A stretch of 5,551 nucleotides of DNA from Chloroflexota bacterium. GTDB lineage: Bacteria > Chloroflexota > Anaerolineae > Anaerolineales > Villigracilaceae. Below are positions 1 through 5,551 of the stretch, in pieces. The position numbers and the translations under genes were made by a program. Numbering within the stretch: position 1 is the first letter of the stretch; every line of letters begins with the position of its first letter. Where the stretch lies: NCBI GenBank assembly GCA_021796315.1, contig JAJYOH010000425.1, forward strand, positions 1 to 5,551. Reading direction: 5' to 3'. The notes below the pieces were generated by a model. The model did no database searches and was not told the DNA's origin. It saw nothing but the letters and a program-made list of their open reading frames with translations.

Positions 1-691
1 TTCGCTCGGTGCAATCTACGGTGTATTGAAGGCTCGTCCCTTCTGGTATCGTCCTGACGTTGCTGTGCTGTTCATTATATCGGCGGTGGCTGGCGGCATG
101 GCGCTGACAGTCTTTGCGTCCATGCTGGCGCCAAAGCTGACCAAACGCGCCGTGATCAAAGAGGAATTACTTGAACGCGTATCCTACTTCATCGGTTGGA
201 TGATGGCCGCTTATTTATACTTCCGCTTCTGGGACGCGCTCTCCATGACCTATACATACCAGGCCGGGCGCACCGAAGGCTTGAATCTTCTTACAAGCGG
301 GACGCTTTCGTTCAACTTCTGGATCGGCGAAATCCTGTTGGGCGCAGTGGCGCCGATGATCATCCTGATCAACAAGAAGATGCGTATGAATCAAACCTTG
401 CGGATGGTGGCGCTGGCTCTCATTGTCGGCGGCGTAGTGGCTTATCGCTGGGATACCAATCTAACCGGTCTGCTGGTGATGGTTTCATACCTGCCCGGTA
501 ATCTAACCGTCACCTACACCATGTACCGACCGTCCATCGTGGAATGGATGGCCGGGCTTGGCGTCGTGGCTTACGGACTAACTCTCTTCTCATTGGGTGT
601 CCGCTATCTGCATGTGGTGGATCATAGAATCTATGAGGAAGAGGAACACGAATCAGTCAAGCTTGAATCAACAGAGGCGGTACCCGCCTGA
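1..691 (+). CDS. NrfD/HybB-family quinone-interacting membrane subunit, C-terminal part (5' partial)
   Basis: The reading frame is open to the left edge (first complete codon at base 2), so the start lies outside; a TTG at 26 is in frame but is not a convincing start. 229 residues are visible. Counting from the TTG codon, about five hydrophobic helices can be seen near residues 12-35, 52-72, 98-115, 125-140 and 170-195, followed by a short acidic, probably soluble tail. Features recalling the HybB/QrcD branch of the NrfD family are KARPFWY before the first visible helix, the GE...G...P pattern (101-110), an Arg-Trp-Asp-Thr-Asn segment (141-145) and YRPSIVEW (167-174). Such proteins are integral subunits that exchange electrons or protons between the quinone pool and a periplasmic Fe-S, molybdopterin or haem partner. 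The partner is not in the window, so substrate and direction are unknown. It appears to be the last gene of its operon, since a terminator follows within 20 bases. ActC/ActF of alternative complex III is less likely because their GWH-type motif is not seen in this part. Confidence 0.82.
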   Translation, partial: SLGAIYGVLKARPFWYRPDVAVLFIISAVAGGMALTVFASMLAPKLTKRAVIKEELLERVSYFIGWMMAAYLYFRFWDALSMTYTYQAGRTEGLNLLTSGTLSFNFWIGEILLGAVAPMIILINKKMRMNQTLRMVALALIVGGVVAYRWDTNLTGLLVMVSYLPGNLTVTYTMYRPSIVEWMAGLGVVAYGLTLFSLGVRYLHVVDHRIYEEEEHESVKLESTEAVPA

Positions 692-707
692 GGATTTATG
701 CAAAACA

Positions 708-738
708 AAAAAGGACGTCCAACCTGGGCGTCCTTTTT
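708..738. terminator. Bidirectional intrinsic terminator between convergent genes
   Basis: AAAAAGGACG (708-717) pairs perfectly with CGTCCTTTTT (729-738). On the + strand RNA the stem can extend inward by a U-G pair and two C-G pairs, leaving a five-base loop (721-725). The A run on one side and T run on the other give a U tract after the hairpin in both directions. It lies 16 bases after the NrfD stop and 14 bases after the stop of the - strand fusion gene, so it can end both operons. Confidence 0.88.
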
Positions 739-752
739 ATCTCAACCATCGT

Positions 753-2885
753 TTACTTTTCCAATGCTCCGGCGTTAATCCAATTTGTGATGATTTGAAT
801 CTCGGCCTCTGACAATTTACCGCCCGGAGGCATGAGCATTCCATCTTTCTGGGTTCCCGTGATCTTTTGCACCAGCAAACTATTTGCTGCATTGCCGGGA
901 ACTACTACAGGAGCGTGAGCGCCGCTTTCCATGACTGACTTGTAGCTGGAAGCATCCCATCCGCCCGAACTCCCATGACACGCACTGCACTTGTTCTTAA
1001 GAATGGGCAAAACGTCCGCACTGAATGACGGGATGGCTGATGGAGTAGACGTAGTCGTTCCCGTGCTGGCGCCTCCACTGCCAAAAGTTCGAATGAACTC
1101 CACTAACTGGTCGATTTGATCTGAATTCAAAACCTCGCCCCAGGCGATCATCGAAGTATCTTTATGACCGTTGCTGATCGTGTCAGCGATATTCTGATCA
1201 GTATTGGCCTGCTGGAATTTGGGATCGTTCAACGCCGGGCCAACACCGCCTTCGCCATTCTGGCCATGACACTGGGTGCACAAGCCGGTGTAGATTTTCT
1301 CGCCGGTTAAAGAAAGCACAGGCGGTGTTGGCGTTGGCTGCGCTTCGGGCTGAGCCTGCACCGGGGGCTTATCCTGCCAGGAGCGCAGATAGGCAACAAT
1401 CGCATCAATTTGCGTATCATCCAGAGGGCCGCCCGAAGATGTGCCGAAGGGGGACATTCCAGCATTCGGCTGTCCTTGAGAGATAATTGCGCGCAACGTA
1501 AAGTCGTCGCGCGTTTTTAGAAATTCTGCAGTACCAATGGGTGGAATGGCGGTGCCGGGGTGCGTTGGGTTGGGTCCACCTTCACCGAACTGACCATGGC
1601 AAACCGCACAGCTGCTTTCAAAGAGCTTTTGTCCGGTTGCTACAGAAGTGCCCTGGGTTGCCTGCAAAGTGTAGTTTACAAGCGCGTCCAACTGTTCAGG
1701 CGTTAATACCGATCCCCAAACTGGCATTGTTTGGTGGGCACCGCCGGTTGAAATAATTTGCTTGGCCTGCTCTACGCTTTCAGCTTTCGGAACGCGATCT
1801 CCATGACAGCTTTTACAATTGTTGTCAAAGGACTGCTTGCCAGATGGCATAGCACCCGGGTCAACCACATACTGGGCAAGAATATCGATTTCACTTTGAC
1901 TCAGTTTTTCTTTCCAGGCTGGCATCTCGAGATGCTGTCCGCCCGTGCTAATCAGTTTGCGAAGCTCATCTTTAGAACCATTGAAAGCAACCGAACTGCC
2001 GTGACAGGGAGAGCAGTTAGTTGTAAACAATCTGGAGCCATCTGGCGCAACCAGGAAGTTCAGAAGGCGGGTACGTTGCTCCTGATCCATCGCAGTGGAC
2101 AGGTTGGGGATATTTAAATTGGCATGGGGCGGGTAGCTTAGTCCCAATTCCAGGGCTTTTTTAAGTTCTATTGGATTGCTGGAAACCAGTTCATCCACTT
2201 TATGACATTCACTACAATACTGAGTGAAGAGTTGGCTTCCTCCCGGAGAGAGAATAAATCCTGCCAACGCATCAATTTGATCGGTTGAAAGATCAGCACC
2301 CCAGGCAGGCATTCCTTCATGCTTTCCTTTGGCAATTACATCATGCAAATTAATCCCAGCAGGAACTACGATTGATTCTCCGTGACAGGGAGCACAGTTG
2401 GCGGTATATAAGGCTGCCGTCTGATCTCCTGATTTGGTTTCTGCTGGCGGTGGCGCTTCGCGTACTGACTGAATGGTCAGGAAAAGAATGCCCGCCAAAA
2501 TGACAAGGGTGCCGCTAATGACGATCGGCCTGCTGCGAAAATCCCGAAACCGGCTCCGGTCGATGAACGGCAGGAGAAATAGAATCAATATGGCCAGTGT
2601 TGGAATCAGCACAACACCGATCACTTCCAGGTTGCCGGGGAAATACTTCAAGAGTTGGAACAGGAACAAGAAGTACCACTCCGGGCGGGGAGTGTATGTG
2701 GTGTCCGCGGGGTTTGCACGGTTCTCCAAGGGCGCGCCGATAAAGTAGGCCAGCGCGACCAGGATGAGGAATAAAACCAATGAAACTACCGCATCTTTGA
2801 AGATTATGTCGGGAAAGAAAGGAACACCTTTCTTCTTTTCTTCATGATACTTTTCGAGATAAGCTTTCTTCTCTTCGTCGTTCAT
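753..2885 (-). CDS. qcrC: QcrC-like fusion: cytochrome b subunit IV domain plus seven c-type haem domains
   Basis: 710 residues. The N-terminal part (about 1-145) is a cytochrome b C-terminal/subunit IV domain with three helices (about 32-50, 87-107, 119-139) and the quinol-site PEWY motif at 68-71, followed by a FLFLFQLLKYF segment very like Bacillus QcrC. Three helices place the rest outside the membrane, where c haems are attached. Seven CXXCH sites follow, with Cys at 164, 224, 291, 357, 426, 536 and 633. Probable distal Met ligands are M192, M321, M387, M477, M579 and M683 or M685; domain 2 has none in the expected place. Domains 1-4 are compact (about 66 residues each), 5 and 6 are of ordinary cytochrome c size with GxGG after the haem site, and 7 is a different type ending in an MPPGG and NWINAGA pattern. 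Pro/Thr-rich linkers lie at about 506-525 and 604-620. Bacillus QcrC has the same layout with one haem. The start is fixed by an AAGGGAG site 8 bases upstream, inside the end of the cytochrome b gene. Likely role: terminal electron-output arm of a menaquinol-oxidising bc complex. Confidence 0.93.
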   Translation of the reverse strand: MNDEEKKAYLEKYHEEKKKGVPFFPDIIFKDAVVSLVLFLILVALAYFIGAPLENRANPADTTYTPRPEWYFLFLFQLLKYFPGNLEVIGVVLIPTLAILILFLLPFIDRSRFRDFRSRPIVISGTLVILAGILFLTIQSVREAPPPAETKSGDQTAALYTANCAPCHGESIVVPAGINLHDVIAKGKHEGMPAWGADLSTDQIDALAGFILSPGGSQLFTQYCSECHKVDELVSSNPIELKKALELGLSYPPHANLNIPNLSTAMDQEQRTRLLNFLVAPDGSRLFTTNCSPCHGSSVAFNGSKDELRKLISTGGQHLEMPAWKEKLSQSEIDILAQYVVDPGAMPSGKQSFDNNCKSCHGDRVPKAESVEQAKQIISTGGAHQTMPVWGSVLTPEQLDALVNYTLQATQGTSVATGQKLFESSCAVCHGQFGEGGPNPTHPGTAIPPIGTAEFLKTRDDFTLRAIISQGQPNAGMSPFGTSSGGPLDDTQIDAIVAYLRSWQDKPPVQAQPEAQPTPTPPVLSLTGEKIYTGLCTQCHGQNGEGGVGPALNDPKFQQANTDQNIADTISNGHKDTSMIAWGEVLNSDQIDQLVEFIRTFGSGGASTGTTTSTPSAIPSFSADVLPILKNKCSACHGSSGGWDASSYKSVMESGAHAPVVVPGNAANSLLVQKITGTQKDGMLMPPGGKLSEAEIQIITNWINAGALEK
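1632..2414 (-). repeat. Four tandem compact cytochrome c modules within the fusion gene
   Basis: Codons 158-418 encode four consecutive modules whose haem cysteines are 60, 67 and 66 residues apart (164, 224, 291, 357). Modules 1, 3 and 4 share the plan: aromatic residue, NC-x-x-CHG, a short helix with the ISTGG or IAKGK pattern, MP-A/V-W, then an L-S/T-x-x-x-I/L-D-x-L helix. Module 2 fits by position but lacks the MPxW core. This is a protein-level repeat that has diverged at the DNA level and points to internal duplication of a minimal haem domain. Confidence 0.8.
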
Positions 2886-2888
2886 CGA

Positions 2889-3548
2889 TTACTCTCCCTT
2901 CTTTGGTACGGCACTAATACCGATCTTGATGACCAAATAGAGATGGACGCCAATTAGGAGCGCTAATGTGGCGGGCAGCACCCAAACATGCGCGCCAAAA
3001 AACCGGGCTAGTGTGACGGCAGAAAGGTCTGGTCCACCGCGCATGATTCTCAGCAGATAATCTCCGATAATTGGAGGTGTACCTGCAATGCGAGTCCCCA
3101 CTGTGGTAGCCCAATAGGCTTTCTGATCCCAGGGAAGTAAATAACCGGTGAAACCAAAACCAATAACAACCAGAAGAAGGACCACTCCAGTTATCCAAGT
3201 CACTTCACGAGGATATTTGTAAGCACCATAGAAGATCACGCGAAGCATATGCAGCACTACCACCACAACCATGGCGCTCGCTCCCCAATGATGCAATCCA
3301 CGAATCAGCCAGCCCATTGCGACCTGTGTTGTGATGTATTGAACACTGTCATATGCATGATCAGGCGTAGGAACGTAGTATATGGTCAGCAAAATTCCTG
3401 TGACTGCCTGATTTACAGCAAGAAACAGGGTCGCGCTTCCCAAAGCATAGAACCAATTAACCTTCGGAACTTGGCGCAGGAATATCACATCCCAGACCTG
3501 ACGCCACCCAACGCGCTCATCCAACCAATCTGCAAATTTGATTAGCAT
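2889..3548 (-). CDS. qcrB: Cytochrome b6-type subunit (N-terminal cytochrome b domain) of a menaquinol:cytochrome c reductase
   Basis: 219 residues from the ATG at 3548, chosen because GGGAGG sits 5 bases upstream; an in-frame ATG at 3584 would overlap the Rieske gene by 35 bases and is less likely. The protein carries four transmembrane helices (about 33-58, 77-102, 113-136, 184-207). Haem histidines are at H86, H100, H187 and H202, the same positions as in chloroplast b6, with 14 residues between the last two (b6 spacing, against 13 in mitochondrial cytochrome b). H86/H187 should bind haem bL and H100/H202 haem bH. GYLLPWDQKAYWAT (135-148) is the conserved segment near the quinol oxidation site. 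The residue matching b6 Cys35, which anchors haem ci, is Ala35. The protein ends before subunit IV, which is encoded by the next gene after a 3-base gap. It forms the membrane core that oxidises quinol on the outer face and passes one electron inward. Confidence 0.95.
   Translation of the reverse strand: MLIKFADWLDERVGWRQVWDVIFLRQVPKVNWFYALGSATLFLAVNQAVTGILLTIYYVPTPDHAYDSVQYITTQVAMGWLIRGLHHWGASAMVVVVVLHMLRVIFYGAYKYPREVTWITGVVLLLVVIGFGFTGYLLPWDQKAYWATTVGTRIAGTPPIIGDYLLRIMRGGPDLSAVTLARFFGAHVWVLPATLALLIGVHLYLVIKIGISAVPKKGE
2894..2900 (-). promoter_or_regulatory. Ribosome binding site of the fusion gene
   Basis: On the - strand AAGGGAG lies 8 bases before the ATG at 2885 and overlaps the last codons of the cytochrome b gene, suggesting coupled translation of the two halves of the split cytochrome b. 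Confidence 0.75.
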
Positions 3549-3549
3549 C

Positions 3550-4029
3550 CTAACCTCCCAAAATGAACAATTGATCGTTTTCAACTTTAACCTCGTACCT
3601 ATTCAATGGACGAGGCGGTGGACCGGCTAATACCTTCCCCTCTTTATCAAAAACCCCATTATGACATGGGCAGACAAAATTATTTTGCTCCGCAATCCAT
3701 CGAACGCGACAACCAAGGTGCGTGCATACATTTGACATCGCAACAAAATCGCGTCCATCCTGAGTCAGAATATAAACAGCCAATTCCTCTTCATTAGTCA
3801 CCCAGCCAGTCTGCCGCTGGATATTGACTTTGAACAAGGTGGGCACACCGATTTCGATTTTGGCTGTAGAGCCTAGTTGGATCCAGCCCTCACCTTGAGA
3901 ACTCTTAAGAGCAGGTTCCACAACATAAACAATGGCGGGGACTGCCCAGGATAAGCCAATCACTCCGCCAATGGCCGCGATGGTCAGCTTCATGAAATCC
4001 CGTCGTGATACATCTTTCTTGTCTTCCAT
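3550..4029 (-). CDS. qcrA: Rieske [2Fe-2S] iron-sulfur subunit of a menaquinol:cytochrome c reductase
   Basis: 159 residues from the ATG at 4029, which has AAGGAG 7 bases upstream; a GTG at 4035 is in frame but only 1 base from that site. The N-terminus has a Tat-type motif SRRDFMK (8-14) before a hydrophobic segment (about 15-38), typical of Rieske proteins that are exported folded and kept as an uncleaved anchor. Cluster box 1 is CTHLGC (102-107) and box 2 is CPCHNG (120-125). C102, H104, C120 and H123 should hold the cluster, and C107 with C122 should form the disulfide. GPPPRPL (136-142) is the proline loop. In box 2 the Ser and Tyr that hydrogen-bond the cluster in high-potential Rieske proteins are replaced by Gly125 and Phe127, which suggests a lower midpoint potential suited to menaquinol. 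It takes the first electron from quinol at the outer site and passes it to the haem c arm. It is the first of three tightly packed genes. Confidence 0.95.
   Translation of the reverse strand: MEDKKDVSRRDFMKLTIAAIGGVIGLSWAVPAIVYVVEPALKSSQGEGWIQLGSTAKIEIGVPTLFKVNIQRQTGWVTNEEELAVYILTQDGRDFVAMSNVCTHLGCRVRWIAEQNNFVCPCHNGVFDKEGKVLAGPPPRPLNRYEVKVENDQLFILGG
3554..3559 (-). promoter_or_regulatory. Ribosome binding site deciding the cytochrome b start
   Basis: GGGAGG on the - strand lies 5 bases before the ATG at 3548 and within the last codons of the Rieske gene. It supports 3548 over the in-frame ATG at 3584, and suggests translational coupling with the Rieske gene, whose stop codon ends 1 base before this start. 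Confidence 0.8.
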
Positions 4030-4194: not shown

Positions 4195-5551
4195 TTACTC
4201 CTCAGGCGCGCCAGCATCAATCCATTTCTTTATGAGGGCAAGCTCATCGGCGGAAAAATTAGCAAAGTGTTTGGAACTTTGAATTTTTACCAACAGACTA
4301 TTGGCCGAGTCATTAGAGAGAACGACAACACCATCTGCGCCGCCTTTCATAATGTTGTTATAACTGGTCAGGTCGAGCCCTTTGGGGGCTGAAGCGCCCT
4401 GGTGGCATACCGCGCACTTGGCGCTGAACAACGGCCCAATATTTGCATTGTAAGTTGGATTTCCGACCACAGGTACAGGTGCCTGAGTGGGTTCTGGAGT
4501 GGGCAGTTGTGCTTGAAGGATTTCCCGTAATTTTGGAGCGTCGAATCCAGCATAACTAAGGACACTACCATGGCAAGCACTATTTGAGCAGAAGGATTTA
4601 TTGGAAGTTGTACCCGCCCCTTCAGTGGTATGGCAGTTCGAACAAGTGGCATCAAAGGCCTGGTTGTGCAAACTGATCCAGTTGGAATTCAAATGAGACT
4701 CGGGCTCGGGGCCTTTGCTGATCTCGATCTTGGTTACAAAATCCTGTGATCCGCTGACGACCGGGATGGAGTGACACAAGTTGCACTCAAGAGGAATGGC
4801 CTTCTGATTAGAGTCCAAATGTTTGCCATCGTGGCAGCGGAAGCAGCCAGCTGAATCAAAGTGACCAATGTTATTTGGATGAGCATTCCAATCCGATTTC
4901 TGATCCAGGAAGACTGAGTCGTTGAAAATCGTTACCAGCTCTTTGACCGCTGCGTCGATTTTGTCTTTATTGGCAGCATAGTAATCAGGATAGTTGGACT
5001 TGTAATAGTCAGCCAGTTTTTCTATCCCGGCAATCCCCTCCTGCTGAGTAGTATATTGCGCGCGTAAGACCTCTACAGCCTGGCGGCGAATAAAGGGGAT
5101 GTCAGTGGATATTGCCCCGGCTTGCATCGATCGGTCAACCGACTCCTCAGGTGTATAAACGCGGTGAGTAATGCGATTGTGGCAGGTAATGCAGTCTACT
5201 CGTTTGAGCTGGCTTGGATCCGCTTTAGAGGGATCAAAGTTAGAAGTCACATCAGTGAACTCTTGCACACTGCCATCGTCGTTAATAACGCGAACATAAG
5301 GGATGCTCTGATCCAATTTATCGGTGGCATAATAATAGACTTGATTCTCGATGTGCCAGTGGATGCCGCGGCCCAATCCCTCACGCTTGGTCCCACCGCC
5401 CGTCTTAAGCACCAGACTAACACTATAAGGTGTATTTTCTTTATCGGGTTGGAAATGGTAAATTACCCGCAGGCTGTCATCGGAAAATTTCTCGGGCGTA
5501 TGACATTTCTCGCAAGTATCCCGCGCCGGGATCGAATGACACAGGTTGCAT
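4195..5551 (-). CDS. Multihaem c-type cytochrome, NapC/NirT-like annotation class (5' partial)
   Basis: The frame is open to the right edge, with its first complete codon at 5550-5548; the GTG at 5412 is in frame but two haem sites lie upstream of it, so it is not the start. 451 residues are visible. CXXCH sites begin at residues 1, 13, 120, 236, 256, 303 and 379, and a wider C-SNSA-CH (CX4CH) site at 321-327, giving at least eight c haems. Conserved-looking blocks are GIHWH (63-67), a helical stretch after the third haem, and NIGH followed by CFRCHDGKH (227-243). I recall this pattern from multihaem cytochromes often labelled NapC/NirT or cytochrome c3-like in anaerobic or metal-reducing bacteria, but the N-terminal domain that would settle the family is missing. 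A Pro-rich linker (about 349-362) precedes a C-terminal monohaem domain like the last domain of the downstream fusion protein. It should act outside the cytoplasmic membrane as an electron carrier. Its position upstream of the bc genes on the same strand suggests a shared pathway; the direction of transfer is unknown. Confidence 0.88.
   Translation of the reverse strand, partial: CNLCHSIPARDTCEKCHTPEKFSDDSLRVIYHFQPDKENTPYSVSLVLKTGGGTKREGLGRGIHWHIENQVYYYATDKLDQSIPYVRVINDDGSVQEFTDVTSNFDPSKADPSQLKRVDCITCHNRITHRVYTPEESVDRSMQAGAISTDIPFIRRQAVEVLRAQYTTQQEGIAGIEKLADYYKSNYPDYYAANKDKIDAAVKELVTIFNDSVFLDQKSDWNAHPNNIGHFDSAGCFRCHDGKHLDSNQKAIPLECNLCHSIPVVSGSQDFVTKIEISKGPEPESHLNSNWISLHNQAFDATCSNCHTTEGAGTTSNKSFCSNSACHGSVLSYAGFDAPKLREILQAQLPTPEPTQAPVPVVGNPTYNANIGPLFSAKCAVCHQGASAPKGLDLTSYNNIMKGGADGVVVLSNDSANSLLVKIQSSKHFANFSADELALIKKWIDAGAPEE

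What the first reader, a model, noticed from the sequence alone, without database searches (positions are those of the whole stretch)
753..2885. A QcrC-type bc-complex subunit enlarged from one to seven haem c domains
Seen: a subunit IV domain with PEWY and three helices joined to seven CXXCH domains, downstream of Rieske and b6-type genes. Known: Bacillus QcrC has the same plan with one c haem, and other bc complexes use one- or two-haem partners. Inference: the complex carries a built-in molecular wire that could replace separate soluble cytochromes and reach a distant acceptor, such as an oxidase, a reductase or an outer-surface cytochrome. I cannot tell whether this architecture has been described before.
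Basis: partly seen in the sequence, partly recalled or inferred. Interest (0 to 1): 0.75.

Follow-up and report, generated by a model that had tools for sequence, protein, structure and literature searches.

The report
Respiratory bc complex with seven-haem tail
A respiratory enzyme of uncultured Chloroflexota bacteria has one membrane subunit that continues into a chain of seven electron-carrying haem domains; it is real, conserved and specialised, and may carry electrons across the cell wall.

Summary
ORF 753-2885(-) joins a b6f subunit-IV domain (PEWY) to seven CXXCH domains, behind Rieske and b6-type genes. It is no assembly join: 203 of 213 listed homologues carry seven motifs, and the form lies on megabase contigs. 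It occurs in 27 of 251 genomes of one Chloroflexota order but 1 of 400 drawn from the phylum, the centre itself. Its sister is a two-haem subunit IV, not a one-haem QcrC; the two form separate clades (UFBoot 99-100), and the two-haem domains match D5 and D7. sdhA lies beside 20 of 20 two-haem loci and 0 of 25 long-form loci; an ImcH-like cytochrome lies beside 19 of 25. Carriers lack Omp85 (0 of 34), and 11 of 34 lack haem-copper oxidase. Best reading: a Q-cycle menaquinol oxidase whose tethered haem chain feeds a multihaem network in a single-membrane cell, possibly reaching the surface. The acceptor is inferred. New variant of a known kind; the nearest known (anammox and Geobacter ext complexes) keep multihaem cytochromes in separate genes.

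The parts
753..2885 (-). Seven-haem subunit IV (SUIV-c7), 710 aa
2451..2885 (-). Subunit IV (petD-like) membrane domain, about aa 1-145, three membrane-length helices
   Evidence: PF00032; helices 26-48, 86-108, 120-143 in a model that is of low confidence here
2673..2684 (-). PEWY motif, aa 68-71
2253..2432 (-). D1, CXXCH at aa 164, conserved Met192
2052..2252 (-). D2, CXXCH at aa 224; His254 at the position where D3 and D4 have Met, so bis-His ligation is predicted
1854..2051 (-). D3, CXXCH at aa 291, Met321
1647..1853 (-). D4, CXXCH at aa 357, Met387
1353..1646 (-). D5, CXXCH at aa 426, Met477; equivalent of the first c domain of the two-haem paralogue
1311..1352 (-). Pro/Thr-rich linker, aa 512-525, pLDDT below 50
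1077..1310 (-). D6, CXXCH at aa 536, Met579; no equivalent in the two-haem paralogue
1026..1076 (-). Ser/Thr/Gly-rich linker, pLDDT below 50 at aa 604-616
756..1025 (-). D7 (PSCyt1 type), CXXCH at aa 633, Met685; equivalent of the second c domain of the two-haem paralogue
2889..3551 (-). b6-type cytochrome b, 220 aa, four haem-ligand His aligned with b6; no haem-cn Cys
3550..4029 (-). Rieske [2Fe-2S] protein, 159 aa, TAT-like N terminus, CTHLGC and CPCH boxes
4195..5551 (-). C-terminal part of the NapC/ImcH-like multihaem cytochrome, cut by the window edge; seven CXXCH in the part seen
   Evidence: 56% over 447 aa to L004:8504-10213

Best explanation
It is the third subunit of a Rieske/cytochrome b quinol oxidase: subunit IV carries the PEWY part of the Qo site and, on the outer face, seven covalently tethered c-type cytochrome domains. 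Menaquinol is oxidised at Qo; one electron goes through the b haems (Q cycle), the other through the Rieske cluster into the haem chain. D1-D5 follow without low-confidence linkers, probably as a semi-rigid block; D6 and D7 hang on flexible linkers as mobile heads. In these single-membrane cells the chain lies outside the membrane and hands electrons to the co-encoded multihaem cytochromes, and through them to anaerobic, possibly extracellular, acceptors. It is the specialised bc complex, in many genomes a second one; the two-haem paralogue beside succinate dehydrogenase is the housekeeping one. Shown by sequence: gene identity, seven sites, conservation, paralogue split, gene neighbourhood, absence of Omp85. 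Inferred: menaquinol as substrate, Q cycle, electron order along the domains, acceptor and direction.
For: Pfam and alignment to b6f chains. Seven motifs in 203 of 213 listed homologues. Separate clades, UFBoot 100 (both genes), 100 (subunit IV), 99 (cyt b). sdhA in 20 of 20 two-haem and 0 of 25 long-form loci; another ORF of at least four haems in 0 of 20 versus 21 of 25; ImcH-like cytochrome in 0 of 20 versus 19 of 25. ImcH-like protein at E <= 1e-40 in 33 of 34 carriers versus 14 of 34 genomes without the long form; at E <= 1e-150, a cut chosen after seeing the list, 31 versus 14 (Fisher p = 2e-5 for the latter). CX3CH plus seven CX2CH in 11 of 11 full-length ImcH-like proteins, one hydrophobic stretch each; the Anaerolinea thermophila ImcH homologue in PMC6295460 also has one transmembrane motif. 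Omp85 in 0 of 34 carriers while 7 of 14 control genomes ring. COX1 absent from 11 of 34 carriers. Lipoprotein cytochromes with collagen-like stalks lie within 15 kb of the long form in 8 of the 13 carriers that have them (positions).
Against: No biochemical data; no solved structure resembles the array (TMq at most 0.24 among the 50 listed of 286). Full model weak (pTM 0.38), D1-D5 moderate (pTM 0.61); haem distances not measured. Collagen-stalk cytochromes are equally common in genomes without the long form (13 of 34 versus 13 of 34). COX1 is present in 23 of 34 carriers, and in G475 it lies about 21 kb from the long form. Six of 25 loci lack the ImcH-like gene; four of the 25 (L003, L007, L078, L079) show no other gene of four or more haems, in 20 kb for L078 and L079.
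Confidence: 0.6

Rival explanations
1. The chain is a hard-wired link to a haem-copper oxidase, as diheme QcrC is in actinobacterial III-IV supercomplexes, replacing soluble cytochrome c.
For: The c domains match the CcoP and diheme actinobacterial QcrC profiles, both below cut-off, and bc-oxidase supercomplex chains in the PDB. COX1 in 23 of 34 carriers, in one of them (G475) about 21 kb from the long form.
Against: 11 of 34 carriers have no COX1 at E <= 1e-20, including G443, whose 3.4 Mb contig spans about its whole genome. No significant enrichment over genomes without the long form (20 of 34; p = 0.6). By the places listed, COX1 lies within 25 kb of the long form in 1 of 34 (many contigs are short).
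Confidence: 0.15
2. The complex is a hub feeding cell-surface or wall-space reductases (nitrite, tetrathionate, N-oxides), not extracellular solids.
For: Neighbouring 8-haem proteins match cytochrome c554, DmsE and NrfB type models, the NCBIfam ones below cut-off. NrfD and Fe-S modules lie nearby. In Campylobacter the menaquinol-cytochrome c reductase is coupled to nitrate and TMAO respiration (PMC6195509; title and start of abstract seen in listing).
Against: No specific reductase was recognised next to the genes, but only a few neighbours were scanned against families; stalked lipoprotein cytochromes suggest a longer path.
Confidence: 0.2
3. Electrons run inward: the chain takes electrons from an outside donor (Fe(II), a partner cell) and the complex reduces quinone in reverse.
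For: Multihaem conduits can run both ways (established knowledge). A QrcA-type 5-haem protein (111 bits, cut-off 180) and a molybdopterin-type protein lie near the complex in L072.
Against: Six of seven domains have a conserved Met, expected to give high potentials suited to accepting from Rieske; nothing shown directly.
Confidence: 0.08

Closest known systems
Anammox Rieske/cytochrome b complexes Kuste4569-4574 and Kustd1480-1485 (PMC12954380, passages seen)
   Same: b6-like four-helix cytochrome b, subunit-IV-like protein, Rieske protein and hexa- or octahaem cytochrome c
   Different: There the multihaem cytochrome is a separate subunit, subunit IV is modelled with five helices, and a putative NAD(P) oxidoreductase is present; here the haems are fused to a three-helix subunit IV and no such gene was recognised (not searched for by profile)
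Geobacter extHIJKLMNOPQS cluster (PMC5877670, passages seen)
   Same: Rieske ExtO, cytochrome b ExtP and membrane protein ExtQ beside 10- and 12-haem cytochromes; window cyt b scores 224 bits against ExtP (cut-off 290) and the fused protein 27 bits against ExtQ (cut-off 150)
   Different: Multihaem proteins are separate genes; outer-membrane porin-like ExtI is part of the cluster
Bacillus QcrC and other bc complexes with fused c domain (architecture recalled, not tested here)
   Same: Subunit IV plus c-type domain on one chain
   Different: One haem c (recalled) instead of seven; the nearest relative found here has two
Two-haem subunit IV of the same Chloroflexota order
   Same: Same membrane domain; D5 and D7 equivalents
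   Different: No D1-D4 or D6 equivalents; adjacent to sdhA; separate clade

Membership tests
Rieske/cytochrome b (bc) complex | Cytochrome b N-terminal part with four haem-ligand His | tested here: met
   PF00033 175 bits; the four His align with b6 chains
Rieske/cytochrome b (bc) complex | Rieske protein encoded with it | tested here: met
   PF00355 48 bits, cut-off 20.3
Rieske/cytochrome b (bc) complex | Subunit-IV part with PEWY | tested here: met
   PF00032 50.5 bits, cut-off 20.7; PEWY
Rieske/cytochrome b (bc) complex | Quinol oxidation with Q cycle | not testable with these tools
   biochemistry needed
Cytochrome b6f proper | Covalent haem cn/ci cysteine in cyt b6 | tested here: not met
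   Ala in the window; of 77 neighbouring cyt b entries 70 matched the pattern: 67 Thr, 3 Ala, 0 Cys; 7 not matched
Cytochrome b6f proper | Cytochrome f as c-type subunit | tested here: not met
   No cytochrome f family among the Pfam matches of the five window proteins; class I c domains instead
Bacillus-type QcrC | Subunit IV fused to a single haem c domain (definition recalled) | tested here: not met
   Seven CXXCH
Anammox-type multihaem Rieske/b complex | Multihaem cytochrome c as a separate subunit | tested here: not met
   Fused to subunit IV
Anammox-type multihaem Rieske/b complex | NAD(P) oxidoreductase genes in the cluster | not tested
   No profile search for it; the window holds none
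ImcH homologue (neighbouring gene) | NapC/NirT-like region with CX3CH plus CX2CH motifs | tested here: inconclusive
   PF03264 match of the L004 copy; CX3CH and seven CX2CH in 11 of 11; one hydrophobic stretch, as in the Anaerolinea thermophila homologue, against three in Geobacter; no direct alignment to ImcH

The most novel reading that the evidence does not exclude
A proton-translocating Q-cycle entry point for extracellular electron transfer in a single-membrane bacterium: the quinol oxidase carries its own covalent seven-haem conductor, with a predicted bis-His haem second in line, spanning toward the cell surface without soluble carriers.
Probability: 0.3. Interest if true: 0.8.

Novelty: new variant of a known kind. 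Interest (0 to 1): 0.55.

Why it matters
Known quinol oxidases of bacterial extracellular electron transfer such as ImcH (NapC/NirT-like) and CbcL (HydC/FdnI-like; PMC6295460, passages seen) are not Rieske complexes. A bc complex with a built-in conductor would couple such transfer to a Q cycle and show how cells without an outer membrane move electrons outward. It also gives a clean natural experiment: a housekeeping two-haem and a specialised seven-haem bc complex in one genome. Finally, it is a marker for respiration in a large, mostly uncultured group.

Tried and rejected
Assembly join: rejected.

Dedicated oxidase link: tested by COX1 frequency; no significant enrichment.

Collagen-stalk cytochrome as specific partner: tested, no association (13 of 34 versus 13 of 34).

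Structure route: the full model is too weak for haem geometry; the D1-D5 model is moderate; the PDB matches listed were single c-domain fits or poor multi-domain overlaps.

The first tree kept only three two-haem rows because of a too narrow motif filter. It was repeated with 59 rows, 19 dropped for want of a cyt b that passed the filter.

Origin of the D1-D4 cassette outside this family: not found, but searched only through, which list the best 120 of 2678 and of 1714 hits. Fused multihaem subunit IV in other phyla: not searched beyond these. Rooting of the two clades: not done.

Literature: ten searches. No listed title or abstract beginning tells of a subunit IV fused to seven haems; one search listed 15 of 1,886 and 15 of 36. 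The library holds open-licence papers only, so this is not proof of absence.

Full report
What is there. No whole genome is held for the window. Its ten named relatives are all titled Chloroflexota or a group of it: three Anaerolineales, one Anaerolineae, one Thermoflexales, one 'Chloroflexus sp.', four with a phylum name only. On the minus strand lie, in order of transcription, a multihaem cytochrome cut by the window edge (4195-5551), a Rieske protein (3550-4029), a b6-type cytochrome b (2889-3551) and the 710-aa protein of the finding (753-2885). The Rieske and cyt b genes overlap by two bases, and cyt b and the 710-aa gene are three bases apart, so they look like one operon. A convergent NrfD-type gene lies at 2-691(+). 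A hairpin with T-runs between them (690-750; -17.6 kcal/mol, z -2.65) looks like a shared terminator; the simple terminator scan did not list it.

Anatomy. The protein starts with a petD/subunit-IV domain (PF00032, aa 57-145) with PEWY, followed by seven c-type domains. Every cysteine is in a haem motif, and shuffles give 0.006 motifs on average. D1-D4 are short (60-70 aa) and related to each other: hhalign E-values are 1e-21 for D1-D3, 3.7e-27 for D3-D4 and about 5e-16 for D2-D3 and D2-D4. D5 and D6 are longer class I domains, and D7 is of the PSCyt1 type. The whole-protein model has mean pLDDT 72.6 and pTM 0.38; it drops below 50 at aa 50-87, 143-152, 512-525 and 604-616, so the membrane part is not well modelled. 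D1-D5 alone give pLDDT 82.7 and pTM 0.61, with no stretch below 50 except residues 1-3. This fits a five-domain block with two tethered heads, but gives no haem distances.

Haem ligands. Domain alignments were made from 157 proteins chosen for exactly seven motifs (144 to 148 distinct rows per domain). D1, D3, D4, D5, D6 and D7 each have a Met conserved in at least 99% of rows. D2 has none above 75%; instead it has a His in 146 of 146, 30 residues after the first Cys, where D3 and D4 have their Met. Among the 213 listed homologues that His is found within one residue of the place in 212 of the 212 with seven or more motifs; 63 of these 212 do have some Met in the wider D2 stretch. I therefore predict a bis-His haem in D2. 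This is inference: D1, D3 and D4 also have a conserved His three residues before their Met.

How common. Of 120 best homologues 115 have seven motifs, 3 eight, 1 ten, 1 six. Adding a search from a distant member gives 213 listed proteins: 203 with seven, 8 with eight, 1 with ten, 1 with six. These are the best 120 of 2678 and of 1714 hits. In P0012 the extra haems are repeats of the last domain (alignment); L053, L054 and L056 stop after D6. Where a source gave an organism name, it was Chloroflexi, Chloroflexota or Anaerolineales. With the window protein as query, strong matches (E <= 1e-100, counted by me from the rows) occur in 27 of 251 genomes of the order of G003, a genome titled Anaerolineales, and in 16 of 152 of the family of G001. 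They occur in 3 of 296 genomes drawn from the class of G005 with completeness of at least 80 and in 1 of 400 from its phylum, the centre itself; both used E <= 1e-60. One of the three class hits is G002, titled Thermoflexales, so the form may not be confined to one order. Two of the 27 (G503, G429) are truncated copies, and two more genomes (G423, G480) have only small pieces. The form sits on contigs of 4.5 and 3.4 Mb (G448, G443).

The paralogue. At E <= 1e-25, 68 further genomes of the order sample have a shorter subunit IV and no long form, and 13 of the 27 long-form genomes have it too, two of these as partial genes (my count of rows). Of 78 distinct subunit-IV proteins read from loci, 35 have seven motifs, 32 two, 4 six, 2 five, 2 three, and one each eight, four and one; some are cut by contig ends. 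hhalign pairs the first c domain of 15 two-haem proteins with D5 (E 4e-32) and the second with D7 (E 2e-24). In trees of subunit IV, of cyt b and of both, 27 long forms (four or more motifs read) and 32 short forms (three or fewer) fall on two sides of one branch (UFBoot 100, 99 and 100). Nineteen further rows, 16 of them long, were dropped because no cyt b passed the filter. So the difference is a D1-D4 cassette plus D6, in one clade. Whether it was gained or lost is open, since the tree is unrooted.

Neighbourhoods. I compared 25 long-form loci (the window, the ten loci, and the fourteen 13-20 kb stretches) with 20 two-haem loci (8-20 kb, chosen for genomes with both forms or long contigs). 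Long-form loci range from 3 to 22 kb, which lowers their counts. sdhA is in 0 of 25 and 20 of 20. A second ORF with at least four haem motifs is in 21 of 25 and 0 of 20. The NapC/ImcH-like seven-haem protein is in 19 of 25 and 0 of 20 (missing in L003, L007, L076-L079). Eleven full-length ImcH-like proteins each have one CX3CH, seven CX2CH and one hydrophobic stretch. PMC6295460 (passages seen) counts one Chloroflexi ImcH homologue and says that of Anaerolinea thermophila has only one transmembrane motif. Other neighbours are 8-, 9- and 10-haem proteins, a cytochrome b scoring as formate dehydrogenase gamma (below cut-off), NrfD plus Fe-S modules, a histidine kinase carrying two CXXCH motifs, and in L072 a QrcA-like 5-haem and a molybdopterin-type protein.

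Genome-level tests. I took 34 genomes with the long form and 34 with a shorter subunit IV and no long form (haem number read only for part of these). The ImcH-like protein is in 33 versus 14 at E <= 1e-40, and in 31 versus 14 at E <= 1e-150, a cut chosen afterwards (p = 2e-5 for the latter; kinship not corrected). COX1 is in 23 versus 20. A relative of the collagen-stalked 8-haem lipoprotein is in 13 versus 13. Omp85 is in 0 of 34 carriers, with the family found in 7 of 14 control genomes, consistent with a single membrane. MAG incompleteness can lower any of these counts.

How it most likely works. By homology the complex oxidises menaquinol with a Q cycle. Subunit IV of b6f has its C terminus on the outer side (established knowledge), so the haem array is outside the membrane, facing wall or surface. 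The Rieske head should reduce either D1, which is nearest the membrane in sequence, or D5, which is the counterpart of the first c domain of the ordinary form; I cannot decide. The array then passes electrons to the co-encoded multihaem cytochromes. Oxygen respiration through a haem-copper oxidase cannot be the only use, as 11 of 34 carriers lack one, among them G443 with a chromosome-size contig. Extracellular transfer is the boldest fit and remains unproven.

What is known. Rieske/b complexes with multihaem partners exist: the anammox complexes with hexa- or octahaem subunits (PMC12954380, passages seen) and the Geobacter ext cluster (PMC5877670, passages seen). In both the multihaem proteins are separate. 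The anammox Kuste3096-3097 complex has a two-haem domain fused to cytochrome b (same passages). ANME-2a and -2b archaea pair a VhtC-like cytochrome b with 7-11-haem proteins (PMC9012536, passages seen; the word Rieske does not occur in it). Ten searches of an open-licence library listed no title or abstract beginning on a subunit IV fused to seven haems. I rate it a new variant of a known kind.

Noticed in passing
L004:10271-11554, L072:5385-6647, L075:5032-6294, L126-L154: Family of 8-haem cytochromes with an N-terminal collagen-like Gly-X-Y stretch: of 29 loci 28 have six or more repeats in a row and 25 also a lipobox, in genomes where carriers lack Omp85: possible stalked surface cytochromes.
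   Followed up: partly
L004:2421-3935; L072:11926-13440; L075:11577-13091: Histidine kinase-like protein with two CXXCH motifs next to the seven-haem gene, followed by a response regulator: a possible c-haem redox sensor for the cluster.
   Followed up: no
L076 (G503), L077 (G429): Truncated seven-haem genes on chromosome-size contigs, matching the query only from aa 177 and aa 323 on, with no Rieske or cyt b mapped beside them; natural loss or assembly fault not decided.
   Followed up: no
P0012: A 1056-aa relative with ten haem motifs through repeats of the last domain.
   Followed up: partly
L086, L087, L088, L090: Subunit IV proteins of 645-697 aa with only two haem motifs and a long part free of them.
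   Followed up: no
window 690-750: Hairpin with T-runs between the convergent NrfD and seven-haem genes, likely a shared terminator.
   Followed up: partly
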